Below, piece by piece: positions 10,145 through 42,544 of a stretch of DNA of 47,059 bases; position 1 is the stretch's first letter; every line of letters begins with the position of its first letter. This stretch comes from Nitrospira sp. GTDB taxonomy: Bacteria; Nitrospirota; Nitrospiria; Nitrospirales; Nitrospiraceae. The notes below the pieces were generated by a model that was not told where the DNA came from, ran no database searches, and saw nothing but the letters and a program-made list of their open reading frames with translations. The stretch covers positions 68,501 through 115,559 of the forward strand of contig SWDG01000027.1 of the NCBI GenBank assembly GCA_005116965.1, read 5' to 3'. The translations under genes were made by a program, and so were the position numbers.

Positions 10145-10225
10145 TGAGAGAAGGCGCCGGTCGCATGACTGGGAGTATCGAGACTGGTAAGATGATGAGA
10201 ATTGGCCTTGATCCTGAGATTCGAG

Positions 10226-17171: not shown

Positions 17172-17867
17172 CTACCGCATTCTCGTCTTCAGTGTCGGGC
17201 CAAGAGACTCTAGCGTGTTAATCCACGAATTAAAGTGCGGACATTTGTTTCTCAATGTAGGAAGTCCGATGGCAGCAGCAGCCGGTGCGCCAACCCGTAC
17301 TTTACTCGTTTCATAAATCGGGACATGGTGAATAAGACGCTTGCTGGGGGCTGTGGTTGTGCCATCGTTGATTTCCTCTGGGGGAATATTTTTGACTTCC
17401 TTGGTGAGTGTGGTCAGTCCTCGCTCTGATCCGGCGATACGTTTTTGGAGTTGTGAAAGATCGCAGTACAGGAGCGCCTCGAATTCATGAAGTTGGATAT
17501 ATGGCAGGAAGCGTTGATCTTTGATATCTGCTCGAAGTGAGTCCTCCAATACCGCGATGCGATCCTGTGGATGGGTGAGTGTCCTTGCTTTAGCCCAACC
17601 AGGGAACGCGTTGGGTAACGCATAGAGGTTGATCATGGTGGTGAATCGTGCTTCTTCACTCTGGTCTTCCAGCATGAGGCGGTGGAGGTCTCCGCGAATC
17701 TTGTCGTAATCCATGATGCCGCCCCGTCTCCCGAGTTTACGGTTGGTTAGGACGACTCGTGCTTTCACGTCGATGCTGTACTGTGCCAGATGTGGGGCCA
17801 ATGCCTCCTCGGAGAATTTTCGCTCTGTTTGTCCCTCAGTCGTAATGTAAAGCCGGACCCATTTCAT
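17172..17867 (-). CDS. DUF4276 family (TOPRIM-like) protein, partner of the AAA ATPase
   Basis: The protein opens with LYITTEGQTERKFSEEALAPHL, the glutamate-containing signature of DUF4276/TOPRIM-like proteins, and continues through YIQLHEFEALLYCDL, another family block. TOPRIM-like domains are often metal-dependent nucleases. Its ATG overlaps the ATPase stop by one base (TAATG), so the two are translated together. Split ATPase plus TOPRIM pairs resemble OLD-family nucleases cut into two chains, and similar pairs occur in defence islands. Anti-phage activity is inference. The last ~60 residues contain no motif I recognise. Confidence 0.65.
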   Translation of the reverse strand: MKWVRLYITTEGQTERKFSEEALAPHLAQYSIDVKARVVLTNRKLGRRGGIMDYDKIRGDLHRLMLEDQSEEARFTTMINLYALPNAFPGWAKARTLTHPQDRIAVLEDSLRADIKDQRFLPYIQLHEFEALLYCDLSQLQKRIAGSERGLTTLTKEVKNIPPEEINDGTTTAPSKRLIHHVPIYETSKVRVGAPAAAAIGLPTLRNKCPHFNSWINTLESLGPTLKTRMR

Positions 17868-18967
17868 TAGGGTTGGCCTCCCAATTCATTTTTTTCCCAT
17901 AGCTGACCGAGCGTGTATTCTTTGAGCCATGCTTCAAGTCGATCCTGATTTTGGCGGGACAGAACCGTTTCGCCATCTCGATGGTTGGCGACAATCACCT
18001 GGTTAGCCTCAAATTCATCAAGCAAGACCGATGATTGTGTCGAGACGATCAACTGAGATCGATCAGCTGCTTCATGGAGAAGACTGGCCAAGAGTTTGAT
18101 GGCTTGAGGGTGTAATCCGAGTTCCGGCTCGTCTATAAGAATCGTCGAAGGTGGGTTCGGTTGCAGGAGAAGTGCGGCGAGGCAGATGTATCGCACCGTT
18201 CCGTCGGAGAGTTGATGTGGGTAGTAAAGCAAGTCGGAGTATCGGTCTTTCCAAAGCAACTGGGTTTGTCCAGGCCCTACCTCCTTGAGGATAAATGTGC
18301 CGAAAAATGGTGCGACTTGACGTACAGTCTCAAGAATTTGTTCGTAATGCTCTGGATAGCGAGTAGACAGGCGCAGAAGGAATGCAGCAATATTTGAGGC
18401 GTTGCTGTGCAGCACGTCGTTGTCCACGACGTTGCACCTACCCATGACTGGTGCTGATGGAGAGGTATCATGGAAGTGATAGACTCGCCAATCTCGGATC
18501 GTGGTTGCTACCCACTGCTGTGAGCTGCTGAGATTGGTTGATCGAGCTAAGGGGCTTTCGAGGTGCCCGCTGCCTTGGTCGTTCTTAATGGCACCATAGA
18601 TAGGGCCTGCGAATGGTGCAGACTCTTGGGCGAAAAAGAGTGATCGATCGTCAGCCGCTCGCAAGGTGAAGGTGTATTCGTTGAGGCCAAACTTTAGGTG
18701 CGCCGTGAACTCTGGTGTTACCTTCATGCCTTGGAAAAGAAACGCGTCGGCGCGGCCACGGCTGCTGACGTAATTTTGTAATCCTCTGTTGGCATCCATG
18801 ATGTTGCCGAGCAATTCAAAAAAACGAATGAAGTTGGTTTTTCCTGATCCATTCGCTCCGATCAGCACGTTGAGACCGGAATGCATTCGGAAGGCATTGA
18901 GTTCTCGGAACGATTTGTATCCGGAGAGGGAGATTTCTCCCAACGGCCGTTTCTCAGCGAATGGCAT
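17867..18967 (-). CDS. AAA family ATPase (SMC/ABC-like, defence-associated type)
   Basis: The N-terminus (ISLSGYKSFRELNAF) leads into Walker A GANGSGKTNFIRFF. A long insert follows, then the ABC-type signature LSDGTVRYICLAALLL, Walker B STILIDEPELGLHP and the switch STQSSVLLDEF. This is the arrangement of AAA_21/RecF-like ATPases that partner with nuclease subunits (OLD, Gabija-like or DUF4276 partners). The 366-residue size indicates no fused nuclease; that role would fall to the overlapping downstream gene. The upstream 143-nt gap contains an isolated TTGACA but no matching -10. Confidence 0.75.
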   Translation of the reverse strand: MPFAEKRPLGEISLSGYKSFRELNAFRMHSGLNVLIGANGSGKTNFIRFFELLGNIMDANRGLQNYVSSRGRADAFLFQGMKVTPEFTAHLKFGLNEYTFTLRAADDRSLFFAQESAPFAGPIYGAIKNDQGSGHLESPLARSTNLSSSQQWVATTIRDWRVYHFHDTSPSAPVMGRCNVVDNDVLHSNASNIAAFLLRLSTRYPEHYEQILETVRQVAPFFGTFILKEVGPGQTQLLWKDRYSDLLYYPHQLSDGTVRYICLAALLLQPNPPSTILIDEPELGLHPQAIKLLASLLHEAADRSQLIVSTQSSVLLDEFEANQVIVANHRDGETVLSRQNQDRLEAWLKEYTLGQLWEKNELGGQP

Positions 18968-30602: not shown

Positions 30603-31205
30603 ATGGAACAACAAGGACTCATCGCTGGGCTCTCGATCATCGGATATCTTCTAGGAGCTGTCCCGTTTGGCGTCGTCATCTCAAAAGCGATGGGCTTGCC
30701 TGATCCGCGCACGGTCGGGAGCAAGAACGTCGGATTTACGAATGTCCTCCGTGTGTCGGGCAAGACGCCCGGCATCCTCACCTTGATTGGGGATATGGGT
30801 AAGGGATGGGTAATGGGCTTCGCTGCGACGCAGCTGTTGCAGGATGAATGGGCCATCCTACTCGTCGCGCTCGCTCCATTTCTGGGCCATCTCTTTTCGC
30901 CGTTTCTTGGATTCAAAGGAGGCAAGGGTGTCGCCACGGCGCTCGGTTCTGTTCTTGGGGTTGCACCGCTGATCGGACTGTTGCTGCTGCTGGCCTGGAT
31001 TGGAGCGGTGGCTCTCTGGCGCTACTCGTCCGGTGGTGCGCTCACTGCCTTTGGACTCTTTCCCGTCCTTGCTGCATCTCTTCGACCGACGGCTCCCTTT
31101 GCTTTGTTCTCCGTGCTGGTGACAAGTCTCATTGTGATCAAGCACAAGGGGAATATTGAACGGTTGTGGAAGGGGACGGAGAGTAGGATCGGGCAGCGCG
31201 GCTGA
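30603..31205 (+). CDS. plsY: Glycerol-3-phosphate acyltransferase PlsY
   Basis: PlsY transfers acyl groups from acyl-phosphate to glycerol-3-phosphate, the first step of phospholipid synthesis. The 200-residue membrane protein shows motif 1 GSKNVGFTNVLR (the common form is GSGNxGATNxxR), motif 2 LIGDMGKGW and motif 3 FLGFKGGKGVATALG. Five hydrophobic helices surround them. The ATG has TAGG directly abutting it, a poor ribosome site. It could be read alone. Confidence 0.9.
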   Translation: MEQQGLIAGLSIIGYLLGAVPFGVVISKAMGLPDPRTVGSKNVGFTNVLRVSGKTPGILTLIGDMGKGWVMGFAATQLLQDEWAILLVALAPFLGHLFSPFLGFKGGKGVATALGSVLGVAPLIGLLLLLAWIGAVALWRYSSGGALTAFGLFPVLAASLRPTAPFALFSVLVTSLIVIKHKGNIERLWKGTESRIGQRG

Positions 31206-31251: not shown

Positions 31252-31887
31252 TCAGATCAGGCGGTGCTCGGTGGATGCGCGCAGGTGAGGACCGAGCCGT
31301 GCTGCCCTCAGAGGAAGGAAGGGAGGAAAGAAAAGTCTACCAATGCGCTCGGTTTTGGATTCAATCAGGGCGCTCTTGTGAGACGTGGGGAGGGGACTGT
31401 GAAGGAGAGCTCGGTTGAGATTTGGAAGCGCGGTTTGATCGGCCTGCTGGCTTTTCTGGAGAAACTTCAATAATTTTTGTATGCCGCGCTCAAAATCATC
31501 AGTAAAGTCGATATATTCGAAACCTTCTAAAAGTTTAACGCCAGCTTGTTTGTCTTGCCCCTCGATTATGAGGGGAATTACTCGCTTGCCTTGTCCGAGT
31601 GCCATGCCGACCTCTGCAAGGACCAGACGCGAGAGCGCAGTTTTACCAACAAGGAGCAGCAGAGCGTTACATCCACTAATCGCATCTTTAATTTGCTGCT
31701 CCCAAGCCTCGCCAGACTTTAGCTCTCTTTCGTCAAACCATACAGAAAAACCTTTCCTGTTAAGTTCTTTGGTAAGTCCTCTGGCAGTCTCGTTGTCTTC
31801 ATGCGCATAGGAAATGAATACACTGGGGGGATCTATCTTGCCGACATCATCTCCATGTCTCGATTGTCCATGATCTCTGTTATTCAT
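31252..31887 (-). CDS. TIR-domain protein
   Basis: Residues ~22-145 are a TIR domain: SVFISYAHEDNETARGLTKEL, FSVWFDERELKSGEAWEQ, ISGCNALLLLVGKTALSR, VLAEVGMALGQGKRVIPLI and FDDDFERGI-like acidic ending. The glutamate in LAEVGMA is the position that is catalytic in NAD-cleaving TIRs. The ~65-residue tail is basic with no known domain. It overlaps the upstream TIR gene by 4 nt (ATGA), so the two are co-translated. The region is visibly AT-richer than its surroundings, suggesting transfer. NADase-based defence is a family inference. Confidence 0.75.
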   Translation of the reverse strand: MNNRDHGQSRHGDDVGKIDPPSVFISYAHEDNETARGLTKELNRKGFSVWFDERELKSGEAWEQQIKDAISGCNALLLLVGKTALSRLVLAEVGMALGQGKRVIPLIIEGQDKQAGVKLLEGFEYIDFTDDFERGIQKLLKFLQKSQQADQTALPNLNRALLHSPLPTSHKSALIESKTERIGRLFFPPFLPLRAARLGPHLRASTEHRLI

Positions 31888-32297
31888 ACTACACCTTCAT
31901 TTCTATTAACGCGGGCGCTCAGTTCATTGATATATCTATCGACATTGTTCAACGGAAGTAGATTCCGCTGCTTTAATGCCACGGGCACATTTGCTTTTTC
32001 CTGGAACTGAGAAATACTTACACCAAGAAGTATGGCAATGATTGGTATTCCTCTTATCCAAGCCGCTCCAATCTCTAGCCAGACATAGGGTCGGTCAAGC
32101 GCCCAAGGCGTGATAAGAACGACAAGCTCATTAGCCTTCTGTAGGGCGGTTATGATGTCATGTTCAAAATTAGCACCAACAGCGATTTGCGCTTCGTCGA
32201 GAAATGTTTGAGCGCCGACCTTGCTGCATTCGTGAGAGAGTTGTCTCGCAACCCATGTATCTTCTGCGCAATGACTAATGAATGCCAAGTAGCTCAT
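31884..32297 (-). CDS. Minimal TIR-domain protein
   Basis: The whole 137-residue protein is one TIR domain: LAFISHCAEDTWVARQLSHE, VGAQTFLDEAQIAVGANFEHD, ELVVLITPWALDRPYVWLE, IGAAWIRGIPIIAIL and a helical end. The glutamate in YVWLEIGAAW corresponds to the catalytic glutamate of TIR NADases. It is first of the two TIR genes. Its ATG overlaps the stop of a 28-codon ORF upstream (ATGA). A lone TIR with a second TIR and no adjacent sensor (SIR2, STING, LRR, Argonaute) is unusual. Confidence 0.72.
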   Translation of the reverse strand: MSYLAFISHCAEDTWVARQLSHECSKVGAQTFLDEAQIAVGANFEHDIITALQKANELVVLITPWALDRPYVWLEIGAAWIRGIPIIAILLGVSISQFQEKANVPVALKQRNLLPLNNVDRYINELSARVNRNEGVV

Positions 32298-32380
32298 TTG
32301 GATTCAACTGCCTCCCTCATAGTCGATGATCTGCTGCGCAGGCCAAGATAATCCAAAGCAGCCTGAGGATTCTTACGCAT
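32294..32380 (-). CDS. 28-residue ORF coupled to the TIR genes
   Basis: ATG at plus 32380 to TGA at 32294-32296 encodes MRKNPQAALDYLGLRSRSST plus MREAVESK, a charged helical peptide. Its stop overlaps the TIR start in an ATGA, matching the coupling used between the two TIR genes. A TTGACA lies just upstream (plus 32392-32397), but its best -10 falls inside this ORF. It may be a true small protein, a leader peptide or chance. Confidence 0.35.
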   Translation of the reverse strand: MRKNPQAALDYLGLRSRSSTMREAVESK

Positions 32381-32546
32381 GTCCCATTACTTGTCAACGC
32401 TCTCAATGGCATCGCATTTGGGTGCGTTGTGAAAAGAAATAAGGGTCAGTGTGCTATTTCAAGAGAACGGCTCACGTCATATGGACGTCTGTGAACACAA
32501 TGCCACTCTGATTCCAATAGAGATGTTTCTGCGCTCAGGCTTCGGC

Positions 32547-32966
32547 TCAGACTCGCTGAAGATGATGGGCAACCGCTTTCGTGAACTGGCGAAAGTCGTC
32601 CAAATGATGTTTGCAGATTTGATAGACGACATTCCAGTTTATCGCTTGATAGCTGTGGACGGCGATATTCCTGAAGCCAACTGCTTTAGTCAGACGTTCA
32701 GCCAGGACAGGATCGATGATCTGAAGTTTTTGGAGAACTCCGAAGTTCTCGGCCATGGTCGAGGGAGGAGCTGCGTCAGTCTCGGCAATCAGATGCGCGG
32801 CGACATCGACGGAAAGCTGGATGGCGCGTTGGAGATTCAGCGCGATGATGTCCTGTACGTCAGGGTCGCGAACAAGCTGATCTACAGACGAGGGAGTCTT
32901 GCCGGCAATCCGCTCGATGCAACGCCGGAGCGATTCCAATTTGGTTTCGACTAAGTCCCGATCCAT
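32547..32966 (-). CDS. hepT: HepT-like HEPN-domain toxin (DUF86)
   Basis: HEPN toxins cleave RNA through an R-x4-6-H motif. Here it is RNIAVHSY, exactly the RX4HXY form whose tyrosine is AMPylated by the MntA partner. The 139-residue, all-helical protein also has the DUF86 pattern (LRRCIERIAGKTP, FGVLQKLQIID). Its start overlaps the mntA end by 16 nt, with antitoxin gene first and toxin second. Confidence 0.82.
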   Translation of the reverse strand: MDRDLVETKLESLRRCIERIAGKTPSSVDQLVRDPDVQDIIALNLQRAIQLSVDVAAHLIAETDAAPPSTMAENFGVLQKLQIIDPVLAERLTKAVGFRNIAVHSYQAINWNVVYQICKHHLDDFRQFTKAVAHHLQRV

Positions 32967-33385
32967 GCCTGTCGTCTGTCCGACAAAATGCGGCGGTAGT
33001 AGGGCATGACGTCCGCTTCTTCATAGACCATACGCAGAAGAAGTTCGGCGTAACGCGTTCGATCCTCGCACAGGACTCTGCGTCCTTTGGTCAGGATCTG
33101 CTGAAGCAAGGGGTTGTGAGTGAGGTCAAGGTCTATGAGATCCACAGGACGGCCAACGGCCAGCGCAAGATCTTCAATGATAGCGATGTGAGTTTGAGCC
33201 GTCAGCGGAGACGAAGACGCAACCGCGATGTCGAGATCACTGTCGTTACGTGCGCGATCTTTGGCCATCGAGCCGAATAGAATGGCCAAGCCCACCGACG
33301 GGTGGCGAGCCATCACGTACTTGATCTTTTGATCGAGATCAGAAGTCTGGGGTGGCTCTTGCAGTTGCATGCTTCTGAGTATCAT
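32951..33385 (-). CDS. mntA: MntA-like minimal nucleotidyltransferase antitoxin
   Basis: The nucleotidyltransferase signature GSX10DXD is seen as LFGSMAKDRARNDSDLDIAV, with a third acidic residue later (PVDLIDLDL). Family members neutralise HepT by adding AMP to its motif tyrosine. At 144 residues with a conserved helical end (ELLLRMVYEEADVMPYYRRI) it is typical. The ATG at 33385 has GAGG 5 nt upstream. It lies 47 nt downstream of the HigA-like gene, so the two toxin-antitoxin pairs may share transcripts. Confidence 0.82.
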   Translation of the reverse strand: MILRSMQLQEPPQTSDLDQKIKYVMARHPSVGLAILFGSMAKDRARNDSDLDIAVASSSPLTAQTHIAIIEDLALAVGRPVDLIDLDLTHNPLLQQILTKGRRVLCEDRTRYAELLLRMVYEEADVMPYYRRILSDRRQAWIGT

Positions 33386-33432
33386 GAATGCCTCAAAGCT
33401 GCAAGGAGATGAGGGCGCATTGGCCGTTATGA

Positions 33433-33807
33433 TTAGGCAGCGTGTTCCCGTGTGCGCTTGCGGCGGCGGCGCGTGGAAGGATGGGGAGCTGTTTCCATGG
33501 TGGCCAGTCCGGTGAGCGTGACAGGCTCACGGTCGGGAAATTCGGCGATCAGTGAGAGCTGACCGCCCATGGCTTCAATATAAGTTCGGAGAGTGGATAG
33601 CAGCAAGTCACTGCGCTTTTCGAGACGTGAGATACCATCCTGGCCAATGCCAAGGGTTTCGGCCATGCGCACCTGTGTGAGGGTTAATGCCTGCCTTAAA
33701 TCTCTCAGGGACATCTCCTCGGCGATCAACGTGGCGGCACGTGCCTCGATCTTCTTACGCCGGGTTGGACTTATGCTCTTCATGGTGTGACGTATATTGG
33801 TAGCCAT
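33433..33807 (-). CDS. XRE-family antitoxin (HigA-like)
   Basis: The helix-turn-helix lies at ALTLTQVRMAETLGIGQDGI, followed by SRLEKRSDLLLSTLRTYIEA and MGGQLSLIAEFPD, the usual ending of HigA-type antitoxins next to RelE/HigB toxins. The C-terminal ~25 residues are very basic (STRRRRKRTREHAA), which is odd. It follows the toxin gene by 2 nt in the toxin-first order of higBA. It probably represses its own promoter via the inverted repeat at 34181-34220. Confidence 0.82.
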   Translation of the reverse strand: MATNIRHTMKSISPTRRKKIEARAATLIAEEMSLRDLRQALTLTQVRMAETLGIGQDGISRLEKRSDLLLSTLRTYIEAMGGQLSLIAEFPDREPVTLTGLATMETAPHPSTRRRRKRTREHAA

Positions 33808-33809
33808 CG

Positions 33810-34175
33810 CTATTTCCTTTCCTTTTTCAAACGCCCGAGATGGGCATCAAAGCGTGTGTCAGCCTTTCGAATCAACTCATTGTAGAAGCGCTTTTCGCTC
33901 CCTCCTGATTTATCCCCGGCGACAAGCAGGATTGCGTGCCGACGGGGATCAAACGCGAAGGCTACCCGCCAGGCGCCATCTGCTGCGTGAAAGCGTAGTT
34001 CTTTCATATTTGCGTGGCGCGACCCGTTGAGAGTATCTACGCGGGGACGTCCGAGCTGGGGACCATATTCCTGGAGCAGGCGCGAATGTGCTAGGATTTC
34101 GTCCTGCACATCTTCGGGCAGTGCATCGAACTCCGGCTCAAAGTCGTCACCTATCTCTACTTCCCACTTTCTCAC
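33810..34175 (-). CDS. RelE/HigB-type toxin (Gp49-like family)
   Basis: A 121-residue mRNA-interferase-type protein: VEIGDDFEPEFDALPEDVQD, LLQEYGPQLGRPRVDTL, MKELRFHAADGAWRVAFAF, then LLVAGDKSG and KRFYNELIRKAD. LGRP and KELRF are typical of HigB/Gp49 toxins that cut mRNA on the ribosome. Translation begins at GTG 34175, with no other suitable start. The promoter -10 ends about 7 nt before it, so the transcript may be leaderless. Confidence 0.82.
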   Translation of the reverse strand: MRKWEVEIGDDFEPEFDALPEDVQDEILAHSRLLQEYGPQLGRPRVDTLNGSRHANMKELRFHAADGAWRVAFAFDPRRHAILLVAGDKSGGSEKRFYNELIRKADTRFDAHLGRLKKERK

Positions 34176-34249: not shown

Positions 34250-34278
34250 TTGACTCTCTTCTAACCCCTTCATATAAT
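34250..34278 (+). promoter_or_regulatory. Promoter of the GlmL/DUF6754 operon
   Basis: TTGACT (34250-34255), a 17-nt spacer and TATAAT (34273-34278), 11 of 12 consensus positions. The start is near 34285, ~32 nt before the first gene. It is divergent from the toxin-antitoxin promoter 40 nt away. Confidence 0.75.
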
Positions 34279-34316
34279 GCGGCTCGTTCCAGGTTTGCCT
34301 TATCCGCCCTGCACTT

Positions 34317-34688
34317 ATGCGATCACACTTCAAAGGAAATGCAGCTGAAACACTGGCGAAAGTTCGTGTTGGATTGCGCCATGCGTTTGCCGTTCAACCT
34401 GAGACTGAGTCCCTCGCCATTGAAGATATTCAATTGCTGGAACGAATAGCCGAGATGGTAGTCAAACGCGGCATGGCGGCTCCGGCGACGATGTTTTTGG
34501 AATCCATGGGGCCGATGAATTTTCTCGGCAGTCAGGCCCTGCATTTCATCACACCGATCATTGATTGCGTGTTGAGTGCCAAAGAAGTTGAACAGGTCGC
34601 ACGATTGCTCGAGCGCCGGGATACGGTGACTCGTCTGATCTCAATAATTGAAGCCAGGTCTGCTCCACAGGGAGCAACGGCTCAATGA
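34317..34688 (+). CDS. Small helical protein, first gene of the GlmL/DUF6754 operon
   Basis: The 123-residue product has no signal peptide or known motif. The central block (LLERIAEMVVKRGMAAPATM then FLESMGPMNFLGSQALHFIT) is hydrophobic and probably membrane-peripheral; the end (VARLLERRDTVTRLISIIE) is an amphipathic helix. I cannot name a family. ATG 34317 lacks a Shine-Dalgarno but is well placed after the promoter. Its stop overlaps the next gene by 4 nt (ATGA), tying it to the ATPase. Confidence 0.65.
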   Translation: MRSHFKGNAAETLAKVRVGLRHAFAVQPETESLAIEDIQLLERIAEMVVKRGMAAPATMFLESMGPMNFLGSQALHFITPIIDCVLSAKEVEQVARLLERRDTVTRLISIIEARSAPQGATAQ

Positions 34689-36520
34689 CGGCTTCTGCCT
34701 CCAGCCCTCCCAAGATCGATCGTCCTCTCAATGTGATTGTCGCCACCGATTGTGGCAGCACCACAACGAAAGCCATTCTCATCGAAAAAGTCGGTGATGA
34801 GTATCGACAGACCTATCGCGGGGAAGCCCCGACGACAGTGGAAGCGCCGTTTGAGGATGTGACACGCGGAGTATTAAATGCCATCGCGGAAATCGAAGAG
34901 CTCTCCGGACGAAAGATTTTAGACGGCGACAAGATCATCACCCCTTGCCGTGGCGACAAGACGGGCGTCGATATTTATATCTCGACTAGCAGCGCTGGTG
35001 GTGGCTTACAGATGATGGTGACCGGTGTCGTGCAGAACATGACCGGCGAGAGCGCGCAGCGCGCCGCCTTGGGGGCCGGCGCCATCGTCATCGATGTCTT
35101 GGCAGCCAACGACGGCCGGTTACCGCATGAAAAGATCGAGCGAATCCGTTCCATGAGGCCGGACATGATTCTGATGTCAGGCGGGACTGATGGAGGGGCG
35201 GTCACCCACGTCGTGGAGATGGCGGAATATATCGCCGCAGCGGAACCACGGCCACGGTTCGGCGTGACCTACAAGTTGCCGCTGATCTATGCGGGCAACA
35301 AGGAAGCCCAACCGCAAGTGAGAAAGATTCTGGAAGAGAAGTCGTCGCTTGTTGTGACCGAGAACATCAGACCGGTGCTGGAGCGAGAGAACTTGGCGCC
35401 GGCGCGCAACAAGATTCACGACCTATTCCTTGAGCATGTGATGCAGCAGGCGCCTGGTTATAAGAAGCTTATGGAAATGGCTGGGGCGCCGATCATGCCG
35501 ACTCCCGCTGCAGTCGGCCTCATCATGGAGGCGATTGCCAAACGGGAACATCTGAACCTGATCGGTGTGGATATCGGGGGGGCAACCACGGATGTGTTTT
35601 CCGTCTTTGACGGCGTATTCAACCGGACGGTCAGTGCCAATCTCGGTATGTCGTACAGCGTGTCGAATGTGCTCGCCGAGGCTGGATTGGCTAATATCAT
35701 GCGTTGGGTGCCGTTTACGATCGATGAGCAGACGTTGCGCAACCGGATCAAAAACAAGATGATCCGACCCACCACCATTCCGCAGACGCTCGATGAACTG
35801 CAAATCGAACAGGCGATCGCACGGGAAGCGTTGCGGCTGGCATTGATTCATCATAAGTCGCTCGCAACTGGATTGAAGGGTGTGCAGCAGGAACGGACGA
35901 TTTCGGATGTCTTTGAACAACAGACCTCAGGCAAGACGCTGATCGATATGTTGAAGCTGGATTTGATCGTCGGAAGCGGGGGGATTCTCTCGCACGCTCC
36001 GCGGCGGATCCAATCGATGTTGATGATGGTCGATGCCTATGAGCCGATGGGCTGTACGCGATTGTCCGTCGACAGCATCTTCATGATGCCCCACCTTGGA
36101 GTGCTCTCCACGATCAATGAGAAGGCAGCTACCGACGTGTTCGTGCGGGACTGCATGGTCTACCTTGGGACTTGCGTGGCGCCGATTGGGCAGGGAAAGG
36201 ACGGCGATCTCTGTGCCGACTATGAAATCACCTGGCCCGATAGGAAGACCACGAAAGAGCCATTGAAGTTCGGCGAGTTGAGATTATTTCCATTGGAGTC
36301 CGGCAAGCAGGTTACGATCAAGGTACAACCTGCCAAGGGGGTCAACATGGGATCAGGGGCGGGTGTGGCCGTGACAAAGGAAGTTCATGGCGGTGTCGTC
36401 GGGCTCTTGCTCGATGGCCGTGGGCGACCGCTCCGACTTCCAGCTGATCAACCAGGCCGTGTCACGGCACTGACGAAATGGTTCAATGCCGTTGGGTTGT
36501 ACCCGACGGCGAATGGCTAG
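34685..36520 (+). CDS. GlmL/MutL-family ASKHA ATPase
   Basis: The 611-residue protein has the two phosphate motifs of the actin/Hsp70/sugar-kinase fold: NVIVATDCGSTTTKAILIEK (about residues 16-35) and LIGVDIGGATTDVFSVFDG (about 292). Between and after them lie YISTSSAGGGLQMMV, MILMSGGTDGG and VGSGGILSHAPRR, which characterise the 'glutamate mutase L' family. GlmL accompanies the adenosylcobalamin glutamate mutase in clostridia and is thought to act as its repair chaperone, but no glmS/glmE homologue is present here. An ATP-driven role in the membrane cluster is the better contextual guess. Confidence 0.8.
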   Translation: MTASASSPPKIDRPLNVIVATDCGSTTTKAILIEKVGDEYRQTYRGEAPTTVEAPFEDVTRGVLNAIAEIEELSGRKILDGDKIITPCRGDKTGVDIYISTSSAGGGLQMMVTGVVQNMTGESAQRAALGAGAIVIDVLAANDGRLPHEKIERIRSMRPDMILMSGGTDGGAVTHVVEMAEYIAAAEPRPRFGVTYKLPLIYAGNKEAQPQVRKILEEKSSLVVTENIRPVLERENLAPARNKIHDLFLEHVMQQAPGYKKLMEMAGAPIMPTPAAVGLIMEAIAKREHLNLIGVDIGGATTDVFSVFDGVFNRTVSANLGMSYSVSNVLAEAGLANIMRWVPFTIDEQTLRNRIKNKMIRPTTIPQTLDELQIEQAIAREALRLALIHHKSLATGLKGVQQERTISDVFEQQTSGKTLIDMLKLDLIVGSGGILSHAPRRIQSMLMMVDAYEPMGCTRLSVDSIFMMPHLGVLSTINEKAATDVFVRDCMVYLGTCVAPIGQGKDGDLCADYEITWPDRKTTKEPLKFGELRLFPLESGKQVTIKVQPAKGVNMGSGAGVAVTKEVHGGVVGLLLDGRGRPLRLPADQPGRVTALTKWFNAVGLYPTANG

Positions 36521-36575
36521 AGGTGGATTTGTTGTGAGTGGCAGTCACGTGAAACGTATAACTCAAAACTGATCT

Positions 36576-37700
36576 ATGGCTCATTCGTACACCCCCGGCT
36601 TAACAGTCACGGATCATACGGTCATCCACCGTCGGCGCATGTTACCGCTGCCTGGGACGGTCGTGGTCTCTGTCGGCGATCTGGTCCGTTCTGATCAGGT
36701 TGTGGCGCGGGCGGAGTTACCGGGGAAAGTGTTCCCGGTCAATCTCGCCAATCAGCTCAGTGTGGCTCCGGGTGAGATCAAAGACTATCTCATCAAGAAG
36801 GAAGGCGATGTTGTCGGAAAGGACGAAATCCTCGCTGAGAACAAGCCGTTGATCAAATGGTTTAAGACGGAGATTCGTTCGCCGGTCGCGGGGACGATCG
36901 AATCGGTGTCGAGCGTCACAGGACAAATCCTCTTGCGCGAACCTCCACGGGTGCTTCAGCTGCTCGCCTATGTGAACGGCACGATCATTGAAACGATTCC
37001 GCAGCAGGGTGTCGTGGTCGAAACGACTTGTAGCCTTGTCCAGGGGATCTTCGGCATCGGTGGAGAAACATCCGGGGAGATTGTCATGGCGGTGAAGTCG
37101 CCTGATGACGCGTTGACACCGGGTCACTTCAATTCCGCCATGAAGGACAAAATCGTGGTCGGGGGATCGTTCCTTTCAGCCGAGGCGATGAAGCAGGCCA
37201 AGGCGGTGGGTGTTGCCGGTTTGGTTGTCGGCGGGATTCATGATGAAGATTTGCGCGCCTTGCTGGGCTATGACCTCGGTGTGGCCATTACCGGAACAGA
37301 ACAGGTGGGGTTTACACTGATCCTGACCGAAGGCTTCGGAACCATCCCGATGGCGACCAAGACCTTCAAGCTGCTCTCCTCCCATGTCGGCCAGAAGGCG
37401 TCGATTTCCGGTGCCACCCAGATCAGGGCCGGCGTGATTCGTCCTGAGATTATTATTCCGCAGGAACACACCAGCAGGAAGGGGGCAGCGCAGTCACAAC
37501 GCGAGGGCATTCGTCTCGGCGATCCGGTCCGGATCATCCGTGATCCGATGTTCGGGCGTATCGGTGAAGTATCGGCGCTTCCATCAGGGCTCACCAAGAT
37601 TCCCACAGAGAGTGAGGTGCGGGTCTTGGAAGTGAAATTTGCCGATGGACAGAAAGCCGTCATCCCACGGACGAACATCGAGGTCATCGAAGGGGCATGA
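36576..37700 (+). CDS. Barrel-sandwich (biotinyl/lipoyl-like) and KOW-motif protein
   Basis: A 374-residue soluble protein. Residues ~25-130 read like two half-repeats of a biotinyl-lipoyl/RnfC-type barrel sandwich (LPLPGTVVVSVGDLVRSDQV; YLIKKEGDVVGKDEILAENK; IRSPVAGTIESVSS), without the MKM lysine of true biotin carriers. A glycine-rich middle (VGVAGLVVGGIHDEDL) follows. The C-terminal part has a KOW-like element GDPVRIIRDPMFGRIGEV. It sits 55 nt after the ATPase and overlaps the next gene by 4 nt. The start has no ribosome site. It is probably an adaptor in the complex. Confidence 0.6.
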   Translation: MAHSYTPGLTVTDHTVIHRRRMLPLPGTVVVSVGDLVRSDQVVARAELPGKVFPVNLANQLSVAPGEIKDYLIKKEGDVVGKDEILAENKPLIKWFKTEIRSPVAGTIESVSSVTGQILLREPPRVLQLLAYVNGTIIETIPQQGVVVETTCSLVQGIFGIGGETSGEIVMAVKSPDDALTPGHFNSAMKDKIVVGGSFLSAEAMKQAKAVGVAGLVVGGIHDEDLRALLGYDLGVAITGTEQVGFTLILTEGFGTIPMATKTFKLLSSHVGQKASISGATQIRAGVIRPEIIIPQEHTSRKGAAQSQREGIRLGDPVRIIRDPMFGRIGEVSALPSGLTKIPTESEVRVLEVKFADGQKAVIPRTNIEVIEGA

Positions 37701-38971
37701 GCGACGTGAATCGTCAGGCATCAATCGGCCAACGGAGCGTATGTTTGGTTGTCCGGACTCTGCTGGTGTCTGGTTGGCTCTGTTCCTCTGCCTTGGGACA
37801 GACATCGATCAGCGCTCCCCAAGACGTGCGGGTCTTTGATACGCCGAGTGATGGTGGAGGCAGCCTCACCGTGCAGTGGCCTCCTTCGTCATGGGATGGC
37901 CCAGATGTACGGTATCAAGTCTTGGCCGGTGATGCGGCTGCGACTGATCCGGCAGCACTGACGATTATCGCGGAGTTCCCAGCGAACACGAAATACGTCA
38001 AAGACGCAAAAACAGCCTGGTGGACCAGGAACGTCGACAAAACCTGGCATCAGGTCCTGGTCAGAAGCGCGAAGGGTTTTGAGGTCAAGGATGGGACATC
38101 CTATGCCGTTGCGGTGGCAGCCGTTCAAAGCGATCAGCGGGTCTTCAGCCCGGTCCTAGTGGCCGGTCCTTCGCCGGACTGGTTCAATTGGAATCAGCTC
38201 AATAATCTCATCATCGCGTTGTCGTTCGGAGGGCTGGTCTTCTACTCGATCAATTATGCGAAGCGACACGAGATCTTCCTCCGGCGGATTCCAGGTCTTG
38301 ATGCGGTTGATGAGGCGATCGGACGCGCGACGGAGCTGGGCAAGCCGATCCTCTATCTGACCGGCGCGCATGATCTGCATGATCCCTCGACGATCGCCGC
38401 CGCAGTCATTTTAGGGAAAGTTGCCAAACGGGCCGCGCTCTACGAAACGGAACTGCTGGTGCCTCACCGCGAACCGATCACGATGGCGGTCTGCCAGGAA
38501 ATTACCAAGCAGGCGTATTTGGAAGCGGGCAAGCCGGATCTTTTCAAAGAAGACGCCAATTTCTTTATCACGGCAGACCAATTCAGCTACACCGCGGCAG
38601 TGGACGGCATCATGTTGCGGAAGAAGCCGGCCGCTAACTTTTTCATGGGTGCGTACTTCGCCGAATCGTTGCTGTTGACGGAAACCGGCGCGAGTACCGG
38701 CGCCATTCAGATCGCCGGCACCGACTCGGACCACCAGCTTCCGTTCTTTGTGACGACCTGCGACTATACCTTGATCGGCGAGGAGCTCTACGCTGCCAGC
38801 GCGTATCTCTCCAAAGAACCGGTGCAGATCGGGACCCTCCGTGGTCAGGATATCGGGAAGGCGGTCGTTCTGAGTGCTATCGGTATCGGCATCGTGTTGG
38901 CGACGCTGGGAGCCGTCACCGGCGCGCAATGGCCTCAGTTGTTTCTCGATCTTTTTAGGGATTTAAAATGA
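37697..38971 (+). CDS. FN3-like plus DUF6754 membrane protein
   Basis: An N-terminal hydrophobic segment (CLVVRTLLVSGWLCSSALGQ) is a signal peptide or anchor. A fibronectin-III-like domain follows (SAPQDVRVFDTPSDGGGSLT, later GTSYAVAVAAVQ), then a transmembrane helix (LNNLIIALSFGGLVFYSI), a large probably cytosolic DUF6754-type domain (GRATELGKPILYLTGAHDLH; FFITADQFSYTAAVDGIM) and a C-terminal helix (AVVLSAIGIGIVLATLGAV). The DUF6754 function is unknown. Topology suggests a sensor or scaffold joining an outside FN3 domain to the inside domain. It overlaps both neighbours by 4 nt. Confidence 0.7.
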   Translation: MSDVNRQASIGQRSVCLVVRTLLVSGWLCSSALGQTSISAPQDVRVFDTPSDGGGSLTVQWPPSSWDGPDVRYQVLAGDAAATDPAALTIIAEFPANTKYVKDAKTAWWTRNVDKTWHQVLVRSAKGFEVKDGTSYAVAVAAVQSDQRVFSPVLVAGPSPDWFNWNQLNNLIIALSFGGLVFYSINYAKRHEIFLRRIPGLDAVDEAIGRATELGKPILYLTGAHDLHDPSTIAAAVILGKVAKRAALYETELLVPHREPITMAVCQEITKQAYLEAGKPDLFKEDANFFITADQFSYTAAVDGIMLRKKPAANFFMGAYFAESLLLTETGASTGAIQIAGTDSDHQLPFFVTTCDYTLIGEELYAASAYLSKEPVQIGTLRGQDIGKAVVLSAIGIGIVLATLGAVTGAQWPQLFLDLFRDLK

Positions 38972-39618
38972 TCTTTCTCCGCCGACAGCTACCCCTCTTG
39001 ATCACCTTGATCACGGGTCTCCTCTTTGCCGCCCAGTACTACGTCCCGCATCCTGCTTCGGAACAGATGCTCACCTCCGCGACGAAGTGGCTACAAATTG
39101 TCGGTGGGTTTGCCTTGATCTTGGGAGTGACCAGCCTGTTCCATCAGCATGCGGTGAAGATCAGACGCCAAGAAGCAGGCTGGGGCTATAGCCTTGTCTT
39201 GTACGCCGGCCTACTCGGGACGATTGCCAGTGGACTGTGGGCCAACGGCAAAGAAAGCGTCGAAGGAACCATGACGGCATTCGGCTGGGTCTACAACTAC
39301 ATGATGGTGCCGCTACAAGGGACGATGTTTGCCATCCTGGCCTTCTTCATTGCATCGGCTGCCTATCGCTCGTTCAGGGCTAAGAGTCGTGAAGCGGCTG
39401 TGCTGTTAGTGGCAGCTGTGATTGTCATGATGGGACGGGTGCCGCTGGGTGAGTATTTGATTCCCCTGAGCGGCGATGTGTCGTCGTGGATTTTGAATGT
39501 GCTGAACTCATCGGTGCGTCGGGCCATTCTGATCGGGGTCAGTCTCGGGGCCGTGGCCCTGTCCTTCAAGATCATCTTTGGCGTAGAGCGGTCGTATCTC
39601 GGGGGAGGGAAGGAGTAG
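38968..39618 (+). CDS. Polytopic membrane protein of the DUF6754 cluster
   Basis: About six hydrophobic segments in 216 residues (LLITLITGLLFAAQYYV; LQIVGGFALILGVTSLF; SLVLYAGLLGTIASGLW; MMVPLQGTMFAILAFFI; AAVLLVAAVIVMMG; AILIGVSLGAVALSFKII). No channel, transporter or enzyme motif is evident. The ATG overlaps the preceding stop (ATGA), so expression is coupled to the DUF6754 protein, its probable partner. Confidence 0.65.
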   Translation: MIFLRRQLPLLITLITGLLFAAQYYVPHPASEQMLTSATKWLQIVGGFALILGVTSLFHQHAVKIRRQEAGWGYSLVLYAGLLGTIASGLWANGKESVEGTMTAFGWVYNYMMVPLQGTMFAILAFFIASAAYRSFRAKSREAAVLLVAAVIVMMGRVPLGEYLIPLSGDVSSWILNVLNSSVRRAILIGVSLGAVALSFKIIFGVERSYLGGGKE

Positions 39619-39637
39619 TGAAGGCTGTGAGCGGAAG

Positions 39638-40477
39638 ATGTGGATGGCGGGTATGACCTTCTCGGAAAAAATGCTCAAGATTGACAGGCGGATCATTTTC
39701 TTGATGATCGGTCTCTGCACACTCTTGCCGTTGCTCTATCCGGTCGGCTTGCCGATCAAGATTTCATCGGAGGTGCGCGGCGTGTACGATCATATTGAAT
39801 CGTTGCCCGAGCAGTCAGTGTTTTTGCTGTCCATCGATTTCGACCCGGCATCCAAACCTGAACTGTACCCACAAGCGATTGCCCTCCTGCGTCATGCCTT
39901 CAGGAAGCACCTTCGTGTCGTCACGATGACTCTTTGGGTGTCGGGCACCGGCATGGCGGATCAATTAGTGACACAAGTGGCCAAAGAGATGGGGAAGGAA
40001 TACGGAACAGACTATGCCTTTCTCGGATGGAGTCCCGGTGGGCAGGCCGTGATTATCAACATGGGGCAGGATCTCTATTCGGCATTTCCCAGCGACTATA
40101 GCGGGAAGTCCACGAAAGGCTTGCCGGTGTTGGACGGTGTGCGGAGCTTGAAGGATGTTGGGTACATGGTCAGTTTAGGTGCGGGACGACCGGGGGTGGA
40201 AGAGTGGTATGTCTTCGGTAAGGATAAGTATAAGTTCGAGCTCGGCGGCGGTTGCACGGGAGTCATGGCGCCGGGATTGTATCCGTTGTTACGGAGCGGG
40301 CAGATCAATGGCCTCATCGGCGGCCTCCGTGGCGCAGCGGAATACGAAAACCTGATCGGACAGAAAGGCAAGGCCGTGGCCGGGATGGACGCGCAGTCGG
40401 CCACGCATCTCGCCATCATTGCGCTGGTGATCATGTGCAACTTGTTCTATTTTTCATTGCGCCAACAACGAGGCTGA
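39638..40477 (+). CDS. Two-helix membrane protein with a globular domain, DUF6754 cluster
   Basis: An N-terminal helix (IIFLMIGLCTLLPLLYPVGL) and a C-terminal helix (ATHLAIIALVIMCNLFYFSL) bracket a ~210-residue globular domain. That domain has alternating strand-helix character (QSVFLLSIDFDPASKPELYP; LRVVTMTLWVSGTGMADQLV) and a glycine-rich end (KYKFELGGGCTGVMAPGLYP). No family is recognised; the pattern is Rossmann-like. Starts at ATG 39638 and 39644 are both possible. It follows the previous gene by 19 nt. Confidence 0.6.
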   Translation: MWMAGMTFSEKMLKIDRRIIFLMIGLCTLLPLLYPVGLPIKISSEVRGVYDHIESLPEQSVFLLSIDFDPASKPELYPQAIALLRHAFRKHLRVVTMTLWVSGTGMADQLVTQVAKEMGKEYGTDYAFLGWSPGGQAVIINMGQDLYSAFPSDYSGKSTKGLPVLDGVRSLKDVGYMVSLGAGRPGVEEWYVFGKDKYKFELGGGCTGVMAPGLYPLLRSGQINGLIGGLRGAAEYENLIGQKGKAVAGMDAQSATHLAIIALVIMCNLFYFSLRQQRG

Positions 40478-40484
40478 GACACGA

Positions 40485-41246
40485 GTGACTGCTCTACCGT
40501 TTGAGTCAATCATAGGGGCGTGGGTCGCAACTGGGTTAACCCTCCTTATCTTCTCGTTTCTGTACAAAGACAACCCGCTGTTCAAGCTCGCGGAACATCT
40601 GTATGTGGGTGTGTCAGTCGGCTACGTCATTGTGAAGACCTACGATACGGTCATCATCCATCTGGTGGTCAAGCCGATTGTTGAGAACGGTGAAATCGCC
40701 CTGCTGATTCCGGTCGCCATCGGGATGCTGATGCTGACTCGGTATGTGCCAAAGGCGGCATGGATGTCTCGGTATGCGTTCGCCTTTATTGTCGGGATGG
40801 GCGCGGGCTTGGCGATTCCGAGAACAGTGTCGTCCTTCATTCTCAAACAAGTCGAGGATACCATTCGACCGTTATTGTCGATGGCTGGGTCGGAAGGCGT
40901 CACGTTCTCGATGAATCTGCTCAATCCGGCCAGCCACCTCAACGCGATCATTATCTTGCTCGGGGTCAGCTCGGTGCTGTTCTACTTTTTCTTCTCGATT
41001 GAGCATAGCGGAGTGGGGAAGGCGGTGGCGCGAACCGGCATCCTCTTTCTGATGATTTCATTCGGCGCCGGGTTCGGCTATACGGTTATGGCTCGCATGT
41101 CGCTGTTGATCGGCCGCTTGACGGACTTAATCGAGTTCTCCGATGCCTCGTACGGTCGGCCAACTGTTTGGCTGTCGCTCCTCACGGTTGGGGCTCTCTT
41201 TCTGCTAGCTCGACGGAGTCGAGAGCAACCTCCTGATATTCACTAA
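40485..41246 (+). CDS. Seven-helix membrane protein of the DUF6754 cluster
   Basis: About seven transmembrane segments in 253 residues, for example IIGAWVATGLTLLIFSFLY, LLIPVAIGMLMLTRYV, FAFIVGMGAGLAIPRTV, NAIIILLGVSSVLFYFFF and WLSLLTVGALFLLARRS. A conserved-looking FKLAEHLYVGVSVGYVIVKT sits after helix 1. No recognised transport motif. The GTG start lies 7 nt after the previous stop. It is the last tightly packed membrane gene of the cluster. Confidence 0.65.
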   Translation: MTALPFESIIGAWVATGLTLLIFSFLYKDNPLFKLAEHLYVGVSVGYVIVKTYDTVIIHLVVKPIVENGEIALLIPVAIGMLMLTRYVPKAAWMSRYAFAFIVGMGAGLAIPRTVSSFILKQVEDTIRPLLSMAGSEGVTFSMNLLNPASHLNAIIILLGVSSVLFYFFFSIEHSGVGKAVARTGILFLMISFGAGFGYTVMARMSLLIGRLTDLIEFSDASYGRPTVWLSLLTVGALFLLARRSREQPPDIH

Positions 41247-41308
41247 GAAAGAGAGGTCGTCGAAGCGGTTGCGGCTTCAACCGTTTGTCCCCTACAATAC
41301 CCCCCGCT

Positions 41309-42544
41309 ATGACTACCAGTATCGTAAAGGACTCGACACAATATCCGGCCCTGCGGAATCTGCAGTTTTCTCCCATTAAACAGGGAGAGGATCAGCTGAT
41401 TGTGCTCTGGGATCCCAGTGGTTTGAGCAAGGAGAAGTTGGTCCTGCCGCTCAATTTCTTTTTCATCGTGCAACATTTTGATGGTGAGCATTCCATCCAA
41501 GAGATCGGTGCTCTGTACCTGAAACGGTTCGGCGAGTTTCTGATGCCGAATAAAGTGGAACAGCTGATCGTAGATCTGGAACAAAAACTGTTCTTGGAAG
41601 GACCACGAACTGAGACGGCTCGGCAACAGGCCAGGATTGAATATCGGCAGCAACCGACCAGGCCGGCGGTGTTTGCTGGACGTAGTTACGAGGCTGACAG
41701 TGTCAAACTGAAGAAGCAGATCGATGGATTCTTTACCTCAGGCGAAGGGCCTGACTTCAAGCCGTCGGAGAACCGAGGTAAGTTGATCAAGGGACTGGTC
41801 GCCCCCACGTATGATCTTAAACAGGCAGGGCCGGTCTACGCATGGGGGTACAAGGAACTCCAAGAATCTCAACAGCCGGATGTCTATGTCATCATCGGGA
41901 CTGCCCATGCGGGGTTGGAGAACTTTTTTTCGGTTACGGACAAGGATTTTGAAACACCAGTAGGACTGGTGCCAGCCGATCGGACAATCTTGGGTCGGCT
42001 GAAGAGGCTGGTTCCGGAATTCTTTGACGAAGAGATCGCCCACCAAACAGAACATGCCATTGAGTTCCAACTGCCGTTCCTTCAAACTATCGTCGACAAA
42101 CCTTTTACGATAGTCCCGATTCTCTCCTCATTTTCTGCGTTGAGCCTGACTGATCTTACGGTCCGGAGCTCAGTGGATCGATTTCTCAGCTCGTTGCAAG
42201 ATGCGATCGGTGATTCTGGAAAGACTGTGTGCGTCATCGCAGCAGGGGAGTTGGCCCATTTGGGGATGCGCTACGGCGATAGTGCCCCACCCACCGATTT
42301 TTCCTTTCATCGCACGATGCAGCGTGATCTGGAAATGTTGAAGCCGGTTGAAGAACTGAAGCCGGATGAATTCACCCAATTTATTCAGAAGGAGAACGAC
42401 CAGCGCCGGATCTCCGGTTTTTCACCCATCTATAGTCTGCTGCGATTGATCCAGGCTGAAAAAGGCCAAGTCCTTCGCTACGATCGCGGCATCACCGACC
42501 AGTATAATTCCACCGCCACCTACGCCAGCATGGCGTTCTTCTAA
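41309..42544 (+). CDS. Memo-like (AmmeMemoRadiSam protein B) protein with PqqD-like N-terminus
   Basis: The C-terminal ~290 residues form the Memo fold: RPAVFAGRSYEADSVKLKKQ, VIIGTAHAGLENFFSV, HQTEHAIEFQLPFLQ, VIAAGELAHLGMRYGD and ISGFSPIYSLLRLI. The N-terminal ~110 residues resemble a PqqD/winged-helix domain (FIVQHFDGEHSIQEIGALYL). Compared with Memo, the first metal histidine (APHAGY) is APTYDL and the cysteine of ICG is serine; two other histidines remain. The frame opens at TTG 41285, but ATG 41309 is the sensible start. A 62-nt gap separates it from the cluster, and it probably belongs to it. Confidence 0.75.
   Translation: MTTSIVKDSTQYPALRNLQFSPIKQGEDQLIVLWDPSGLSKEKLVLPLNFFFIVQHFDGEHSIQEIGALYLKRFGEFLMPNKVEQLIVDLEQKLFLEGPRTETARQQARIEYRQQPTRPAVFAGRSYEADSVKLKKQIDGFFTSGEGPDFKPSENRGKLIKGLVAPTYDLKQAGPVYAWGYKELQESQQPDVYVIIGTAHAGLENFFSVTDKDFETPVGLVPADRTILGRLKRLVPEFFDEEIAHQTEHAIEFQLPFLQTIVDKPFTIVPILSSFSALSLTDLTVRSSVDRFLSSLQDAIGDSGKTVCVIAAGELAHLGMRYGDSAPPTDFSFHRTMQRDLEMLKPVEELKPDEFTQFIQKENDQRRISGFSPIYSLLRLIQAEKGQVLRYDRGITDQYNSTATYASMAFF

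What the first reader, a model, noticed from the sequence alone, without database searches (positions are those of the whole stretch)
34250..42544. Eight-gene GlmL/DUF6754/Memo cluster as an undescribed membrane system
One near-consensus promoter leads into a small helical protein, a GlmL-like ASKHA ATPase without any glutamate mutase subunit, a barrel-sandwich/KOW protein, an FN3-DUF6754 membrane protein, 6-TM, 2-TM and 7-TM proteins and a Memo-like protein. Three junctions are 4-nt ATGA overlaps and two others are 19 nt or less. This packing implies fixed stoichiometry. I infer an ATP-driven envelope complex; the GlmL chaperone label is probably misleading here.
Basis: partly seen in the sequence, partly recalled or inferred. 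Interest (0 to 1): 0.8.

Follow-up and report, generated by a model that had tools for sequence, protein, structure and literature searches.

The report
Conserved GlmL-like ATPase membrane operon
In Nitrospira bacteria, eight neighbouring genes that nearly always travel together appear to encode an undescribed membrane machine run by an ATP-using protein whose database label (a helper of a vitamin B12 enzyme) is probably wrong here.

Summary
Window 34317-42544 (a Nitrospira genome) encodes eight co-directional genes: a small helical protein (g1), a GlmL/MutL-family ASKHA ATPase (g2), a barrel-sandwich/swivel/KOW protein (g3), FN3-DUF6754 (g4), 6-TM (g5), 2-TM (g6) and 7-TM (g7) proteins, and a Memo-like protein (g8). 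Three junctions are 4-nt overlaps. Order and strand are kept in 66 of 66 loci holding all eight. g2, g3, g4 and g6 are all-or-none across 295 Nitrospirota genomes: the same 90 carry them, with two gaps where the cluster is cut by a contig end. The promoter TTGACT-N17/18-TATAAT is kept in 81 of 86 distinct upstream sequences and is one of 27 near-consensus sites in the genome; 7 of the 8 scanned precede recognisable, mostly housekeeping genes. The genome has no GlmE and no short B12-binding frame. g2 misses the GlmL cut-offs and has about 120 extra C-terminal residues. The Memo metal site is not conserved and AMMECR1 is absent. I read it as an undescribed, ATP-driven inner-membrane complex. Its task is unknown, and conservation in other phyla could not be tested. 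'Fixed stoichiometry' is not supported.

The parts
34250..34278 (+). Conserved near-consensus promoter TTGACT-17-TATAAT of the operon
   Evidence: 11 of 12; TTGACT-17/18-TATAAT in 81 of 86 distinct upstream sequences, spacer identity 0.71 against 0.29 upstream and 0.39 downstream in 79 sequences anchored on the motif; exact string once in the genome
34317..34688 (+). g1: small soluble helical protein, 123 aa, no Pfam family
34685..36520 (+). g2: GlmL/MutL-family ASKHA ATPase, 611 aa
   Evidence: PF13941 438 bits; NF040745 GlmL 243.6 bits, cut-off 475; motifs around D22GSTTTK and D296IGGATTD shared with true GlmL
36152..36517 (+). g2 C-terminal extension (about residues 490-611), nearly absent from the GlmL proteins compared
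   Evidence: Alignment with three plasmid GlmL proteins
36576..37700 (+). g3: barrel-sandwich hybrid, swivelling beta/alpha domain and C-terminal KOW/SH3 domain, 374 aa
   Evidence: AlphaFold2 mean pLDDT 83.7; VIA-align Z about 8-9 by domain; weak Pfam hits below cut-off in the window protein
37697..38971 (+). g4: N-terminal hydrophobic segment, periplasmic FN3-like domain, TM, DUF6754 core predicted cytoplasmic, C-terminal TM, 424 aa
   Evidence: PF20539 383 bits, residues 159-409; FN3 fold match; helices 165-190 and 375-408 in the model; the DUF6754 core itself was not modelled confidently
38968..39618 (+). g5: polytopic membrane protein, about 6 TM, 216 aa, no family over a cut-off
   Evidence: (82% mean column identity)
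39638..40477 (+). g6: N- and C-terminal TM with a domain between, extracytoplasmic by the positive-inside rule, 279 aa, no family
   Evidence: (81% mean column identity)
40485..41246 (+). g7: polytopic membrane protein, about 7 TM, 253 aa, GTG start, no family
41309..42544 (+). g8: Memo-like protein with an N-terminal domain of roughly 120 aa that weakly resembles PqqD; likely start ATG 41309 (longest ORF from TTG 41285)
   Evidence: PF01875 134 bits; PqqD in 2 of 16 members, best E 0.0068; metal ligands not conserved

Best explanation
This is an undescribed, probably well-expressed inner-membrane complex. Shown: one conserved gene unit with one conserved near-consensus promoter; conserved ASKHA ATP-binding motifs in g2; four proteins (g4-g7) with predicted TM helices, about 17 in all; no mutase partner found. 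Inferred: g4 places an FN3-like domain in the periplasm and the DUF6754 core in the cytoplasm, and g6 places its domain outside. g2, perhaps helped by g1, binds and hydrolyses ATP as its GlmL relatives are thought to do, opening and closing against a partner. Here the partner is not a B12 mutase but the cytoplasmic face of the membrane assembly, reached through the adaptor g3 and the DUF6754 core. The ATP cycle switches the g4-g7 core between states, and the periplasmic FN3 and g6 domains hand the change on to an envelope substrate. My most likely reading is a chaperone-type machine that assembles or remodels membrane or envelope proteins, rather than a solute pump. g8 is an accessory adaptor, probably not a metalloenzyme.
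For: Unit: 66 of 66 loci with all eight genes in order on one strand, dN/dS well below 1; g2, g3, g4 and g6 in the same 90 of 295 genomes (gaps in G258 and G224 where the cluster is cut by a contig end). Expression (indirect): promoter conserved in 81 of 86 distinct upstreams; other sites of that grade lie upstream of genes for ribosomal protein S12, a LepA-like GTPase, RNase P protein, a five-POTRA (BamA-like) protein and FabH (12 of 27 sites looked at, 8 scanned). ATPase: both phosphate motifs align with true GlmL and are conserved in 16 sequences. No mutase: PF06368 absent; all 10 B12-binding matches lie in open frames of 307 aa or more. Topology. g3: BSH, swivel and KOW folds. g8: MEMO1 iron ligands H49/H81/C244 (PMC11081632, passages read) are not conserved.
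Against: No ATPase assay, interaction, expression or joint structure. ATP hydrolysis could be absent or merely regulatory. The DUF6754 core and the g6 domain have no known fold here (the g4 model has pLDDT under 50 over most of 194-372; g6 was not modelled). Nothing identifies the substrate. Most of the phylum lives without it (205 of 295 genomes have no DUF6754 match), including relatives with NXR-like genes. Two genomes of the carrier family, G284 and G018, lack it. In-frame stops appear in g2, g7 or g8 of 5 of the 66 complete loci, unexamined. Co-occurrence within one phylum is partly shared ancestry.
Confidence: 0.42

Rival explanations
1. It is a primary transporter or exporter: g5 and g7 form the permease, g2 is the energising ATPase, and g6 and the FN3 domain bind or receive the substrate outside.
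For: About 17 predicted TM helices in four proteins plus one cytoplasmic ATPase and extracytoplasmic domains.
Against: No match of g5, g6 or g7 to any family over a Pfam or NCBIfam cut-off. ASKHA ATPases are not known to me as transport motors (recall).
Confidence: 0.25
2. It is a sensing or signalling scaffold: extracytoplasmic domains sense the envelope, and g2 works as a nucleotide-controlled switch that, through the KOW domain of g3, acts on ribosomes or RNA polymerase.
For: The KOW domain of g3 resembles those of NusG, Spt5 and ribosomal proteins.
Against: KOW/SH3 barrels are common small folds and the Z values (about 8) are in the middling range by the tool's own note; the Pfam scans show no DNA-binding domain in the eight proteins.
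Confidence: 0.14
3. g2 is still a reactivase of a B12 enzyme elsewhere in the cell, and its place among membrane genes is secondary.
For: Same Pfam family as GlmL; 29-33% identity and shared ATPase motifs; B12-binding domains exist elsewhere in the genome.
Against: No GlmE, no short B12-binding open frame, below the cut-offs of all three GlmL-type NCBIfam models, C-terminal extension, and strict co-occurrence with DUF6754. In 3 of 3 annotated GlmL loci read here glmS and the gene for subunit E flank glmL.
Confidence: 0.05
4. The eight genes are merely neighbours in a strongly expressed operon and do not form one machine.
For: g8 is missing beside g7 in three loci with several kb of flank, one of which (L080) also lacks a detectable g1; gaps between genes vary.
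Against: All-or-none presence of g2, g3, g4 and g6 and constant order while outer flanks differ (the most widespread flanking family is found at 35 of 77 loci).
Confidence: 0.07

Closest known systems
GlmL, accessory ATPase of coenzyme-B12 glutamate (methylaspartate) mutase; NCBIfam NF040745, Pfam MutL PF13941
   Same: Same Pfam family; conserved phosphate 1 and 2 motifs; 29-33% identity to three true GlmL proteins
   Different: 611 aa, where annotated GlmL genes of 1386 and 1404 bp encode 461 and 467 aa; lacks a loop of GlmL; no glmE and no short B12-binding frame in the genome; embedded among membrane protein genes
DUF6754, Pfam PF20539
   Same: Full-length match, residues 159-409, 383 bits
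   Different: A domain of unknown function by name; here joined to an FN3-like domain and TM helices
Memo / AmmeMemoRadiSam system protein B (PF01875, TIGR04336)
   Same: Full-length domain match above both cut-offs
   Different: Extra N-terminal domain; iron ligands of human MEMO1 not conserved; AMMECR1 absent from the genome
RnfC/NqrA N-terminal and biotin-carrier barrel-sandwich domains; swivelling domains (RraA, UPF0107); NusG/Spt5 KOW
   Same: Domain-level fold likeness of g3
   Different: Each hit seen covers one or two domains; none among the rows listed covers all three

Membership tests
GlmL (glutamate mutase accessory protein) | Score over a curated GlmL-type cut-off | tested here: not met
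   NF040745 243.6 of 475 bits, NF040744 218.3 of 600, TIGR01319 171.4 of 204.05
GlmL (glutamate mutase accessory protein) | glmE (PF06368) in the genome | tested here: not met
   0 matches in the own genome at E 0.001; of 14 controls only Haloferax rings, below the cut-off
GlmL (glutamate mutase accessory protein) | Stand-alone B12-binding subunit GlmS | tested here: not met
   10 B12-binding matches, all in open frames of 307 aa or more; GlmS genes seen here are 417-474 bp
GlmL (glutamate mutase accessory protein) | ASKHA ATP-binding motifs | tested here: met
   D22-G-S-T-x-T-K and D296-x-GGATTD aligned with three GlmL and invariant in 16 Nitrospirales sequences
MutL family PF13941 | Score over the Pfam cut-off | tested here: met
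   438.2 bits, cut-off 27
DUF6754 PF20539 | Score over the Pfam cut-off | tested here: met
   382.9 bits, cut-off 27; 15 of 15 aligned members match
Memo PF01875 | Score over the Pfam cut-off | tested here: met
   134.5 bits, cut-off 27; 16 of 16 members match
Metal-binding MEMO1 type | Iron ligands H49, H81, C244 | tested here: not met
   H at the H49 place in 5 of 16, at the H81 place in at most 7 of 16 (alignment uncertain by one residue), Cys at the C244 place in 0 of 16 (ligands from PMC11081632)
AmmeMemoRadiSam system | AMMECR1 partner in the genome | tested here: not met
   PF01871: 0 matches; controls ring in 5 of 14
AmmeMemoRadiSam system | Radical SAM partner | not tested
   Not searched
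Rnf/Nqr complex | RnfC-type N-terminal domain in g3 | tested here: inconclusive
   18.6 bits, cut-off 25.6; 8 of 16 members match at E up to 0.1
Conserved system across phyla | g2-DUF6754 synteny outside Nitrospirota | not testable with these tools
   The one genome-contig scan returned the best 80 of 103 relatives, all Nitrospira-type; the other 23 were not shown. Plasmid searches with g4 and g3 and viral scans found no relative; other phyla could not be reached

The most novel reading that the evidence does not exclude
A new class of ATP-driven membrane machine: an ASKHA ATPase of the GlmL type, recruited from reactivating B12 enzymes, powers a roughly 17-helix inner-membrane complex with periplasmic FN3 and g6 domains, expressed at housekeeping level in Nitrospira.
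Probability: 0.35. Interest if true: 0.85.

Novelty: categorically new. Interest (0 to 1): 0.62.

Why it matters
Nitrospira include widespread nitrite oxidisers and the complete ammonia oxidisers (abstracts seen in the listing). A conserved eight-gene membrane system in them, with a housekeeping-grade promoter and no assigned role, is a clear gap. If g2 energises it, ASKHA reactivases would have a membrane counterpart, and the 'glutamate mutase L' label on such genes would be a systematic mis-annotation. It also gives DUF6754 and three unnamed membrane families a context that can be tested by complexome profiling.

Tried and rejected
Glutamate-mutase reading of g2: rejected. Link to nitrite oxidation: rejected as a strict link. 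An NXR-beta-like match occurs in 8 of 8 family-f2 genomes tested that lack the cluster, while G242 and G107 carry the cluster without such a match and G268 has only a weak one; the other four carriers tested have it. All these matches are below the curated cut-off and 11 of 14 controls ring as well, so this is soft. g4 and g6 as paralogous domains: no profile similarity. Promoter as a general Nitrospira string: rejected, the exact string occurs once in the genome. Metalloenzyme role of g8: judged unlikely on the ligands. 'Fixed stoichiometry': gene overlaps bear on translational coupling, not on subunit ratio.

What led nowhere: PDB sequence searches with g2, g3, g4 and g6 profiles gave no convincing relative. 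Foldseek on g3 gave no match at E 0.001 or better. The g4 model is poor in its DUF6754 core, so only its FN3 part and TM helices were interpreted. Viral-contig scans with g2, g3, g4, g5 and g6 alignments found no relative. Plasmid searches with g4 and g3 found none; with g2, ten records at 27-31% identity, six of them annotated as GlmL or glutamate mutase L and four without annotation at the place. A regular expression meant to tally one Memo residue in all loci was wrong for this family, so only the 16-sequence counts are used. The core identity of 0.82 is raised by anchoring on 12 fixed bases; the spacer value, 0.71, is the fairer one. That PF20539 and 'glutamate mutase L' genes also occur in Chloroflexota is recalled and unverified.
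Full report
WHAT IS THERE. The window lies at G000:C12:68501-115559 of a 3.73-Mb, 99% complete genome. Its closest named relatives are Nitrospira or Nitrospirae records (L003 and L010 at 95-96%, L031 at 98% identity of the best segment of g4). Eight co-directional ORFs occupy 34317-42544. Pfam recognises three over a cut-off: MutL (PF13941, 438 bits), DUF6754 (PF20539, 383 bits) and Memo (PF01875, 134 bits); g1, g6 and g7 have no hit up to E 1, and g3 and g5 only hits below cut-off.

IS IT A UNIT? The one genome-contig scan with the g4 protein found 103 relatives and returned the best 80, all from Nitrospira or Nitrospirota records, two of them titled Nitrosospira in NCBI. The 23 weaker relatives were not shown, so members of other phyla among them are not excluded. 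Gene order is constant over the loci mapped. In 66 loci where all eight genes were found, all 66 keep order and strand, and 57 are also free of stops with at least 80% coverage; of the nine others five show an in-frame stop in g2, g7 or g8. Some loci stem from the same or very near genomes, so these are not independent events. In a draw of 295 Nitrospirota genomes, the same in four searches, DUF6754 is found in 90, g3 in 90, MutL in 90 at E 0.001, 89 of them over the cut-off, and g6 in 89. The sets agree except for three cases. G258 has its g2 cut at the contig start (L159). G224 has its DUF6754 cut at a contig end and no g6 hit. G102 has only a sub-threshold MutL match. Carriers are one family (f1) plus one genome each of f3 and f4 of the same order; family f2 of that order has none. 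Two f1 genomes, G284 and G018, lack it. dN/dS is 0.03-0.17 for g2-g8 and 0.12-0.36 for g1 (g3 was not obtained for L006). Flanking genes are less constant: the most widespread flanking family occurs at 35 of 77 loci with long stretches.

THE PROMOTER. TTGACT-17-TATAAT at 34250-34278 is 11 of 12 to consensus. A scan of 104 upstream regions found 11 of 12 in 99 of them and in 0 of 104 simple shuffles. Collapsed to 86 distinct upstream sequences, 81 hold TTGACT-17/18-TATAAT and none holds TTGACA-16/18-TATAAT. In 79 sequences anchored on the motif, mean pairwise identity is 0.71 in the 17-nt spacer against 0.29 upstream and 0.39 downstream; the 33-nt core reaches 0.82, but 12 of its bases were fixed by the anchoring. 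The exact string occurs once in the genome. At up to one mismatch from TTGACA-17-TATAAT the genome has 27 sites against 4 for the reversed pattern. I looked downstream of 12 of the 27, picked by hand, and scanned 8 by Pfam: ribosomal protein S12, a LepA-like GTPase, RNase P protein, a ComM-like ATPase, a SIS-domain protein, a five-POTRA (BamA-like) protein and FabH; one small ORF had no hit. The names LepA, ComM, BamA and FabH are my reading of the Pfam domains. So the operon carries a promoter of housekeeping grade that is under selection itself. Expression was not measured.

THE ATPASE. g2 shares phosphate motifs 1 and 2 with true GlmL, and its IVGSGG segment aligns with their IVATGG or MIGTGG-type segment; the motifs are invariant in 16 Nitrospirales sequences. 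It fails all three GlmL-type NCBIfam cut-offs (243.6 against 475 bits for GlmL), lacks a GlmL loop and has about 120 extra C-terminal residues. In three annotated plasmid GlmL loci glmS and the gene for subunit E flank glmL (a fourth record has no annotation there). The window's genome has no glmE match, a single MutL-family gene, and no short B12-binding open frame. The mutase-reactivase role is therefore unlikely here.

THE OTHER PARTS. g3 folds confidently (pLDDT 83.7) into a barrel-sandwich domain, a swivelling domain (best Z 9.0, rmsd 2.8, 110 residues, UPF0107; RraA Z 8.9, rmsd 3.1, 126 residues) and a KOW/SH3 domain. These Z values are near the tool's background, so they give fold class, not function. 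g4 has an FN3-like domain, a TM helix followed by positive residues, the DUF6754 core predicted cytoplasmic, and a C-terminal TM helix. The hydropathy scan caught the N-terminal segment and the C-terminal helix, not the middle one, which rests on the model. g6 has a TM at each end with its domain outside by the positive-inside rule. g5 and g7 are polytopic; their counts of 6 and 7 are by eye on top of the scan. g8 joins an N-terminal domain with weak PqqD likeness (2 of 16 members) to a Memo domain. The MEMO1 iron ligands (PMC11081632, passages read) are not conserved, while the places of H131 and H192 are His in 16 of 16. AMMECR1 is absent. g8 is missing beside g7 in L075, L080 and L143, which have several kb beyond g7, so it looks accessory; L080 also lacks a detectable g1.

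MECHANISM. See Best explanation. Shown: conserved unit, promoter, motifs, topology at the level of prediction, absence of the mutase. Inferred: complex formation, ATP drive, direction of force, substrate. I put a chaperone-type or remodelling machine first because the nearest relatives of g2 act as ATP-dependent conformational chaperones of multi-subunit enzymes (recall) and because no transporter family is recognised; a transporter is the main rival.

LIMITS. Other phyla could not be reached: the single genome-contig scan used one protein and returned near relatives; the genome search centres only on genomes already in hand. The literature searches cover open-licence PMC papers only. They returned 0 papers for DUF6754 and for the family accessions, and one for 'glutamate mutase L', seen as a listing, about another enzyme. 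Of papers, only passages of PMC11081632 were read; the rest are listings. The label 'categorically new' means that no known system shares this set of parts as far as tested; the family names themselves are known.

Noticed in passing
window 31252-34175, minus strand: Between plsY (30603-31205) and g1 sit two TIR-domain proteins (also ThsB-TIR matches), a HepT/nucleotidyltransferase pair and a Gp49/HTH toxin-antitoxin-like pair; the distance from a plsY match to g1 varies from 98 to 6038 nt among relatives, so this looks like an insertion hot spot beside the operon.
   Followed up: partly
L153 (G200) 9052-10911: The DUF6754 gene runs on in frame into g5, and its Pfam match is split over two frames: either a frameshift or assembly error, or a natural g4-g5 fusion lacking the last TM helix.
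   Followed up: no
window 17172-18967, minus strand: A DUF4276 protein follows an AAA_21 (OLD/AbiEii-like) ATPase with a 1-nt overlap, a pair resembling a candidate defence module.
   Followed up: no
own-genome promoter sites L175, L179, L184, L193: Some other near-consensus promoter sites of this genome share a pyrimidine-rich stretch before the -10 hexamer, such as CTTCCCTATAAT, similar to the operon's CCCCTTCATATAAT; other strong sites (L172-L174) do not.
   Followed up: no
G107 (f1), G242 (f3), G268 (f4): Carriers of the cluster with no or only a weak nitrite-oxidoreductase-beta-like match, while f2 genomes show the reverse.
   Followed up: partly
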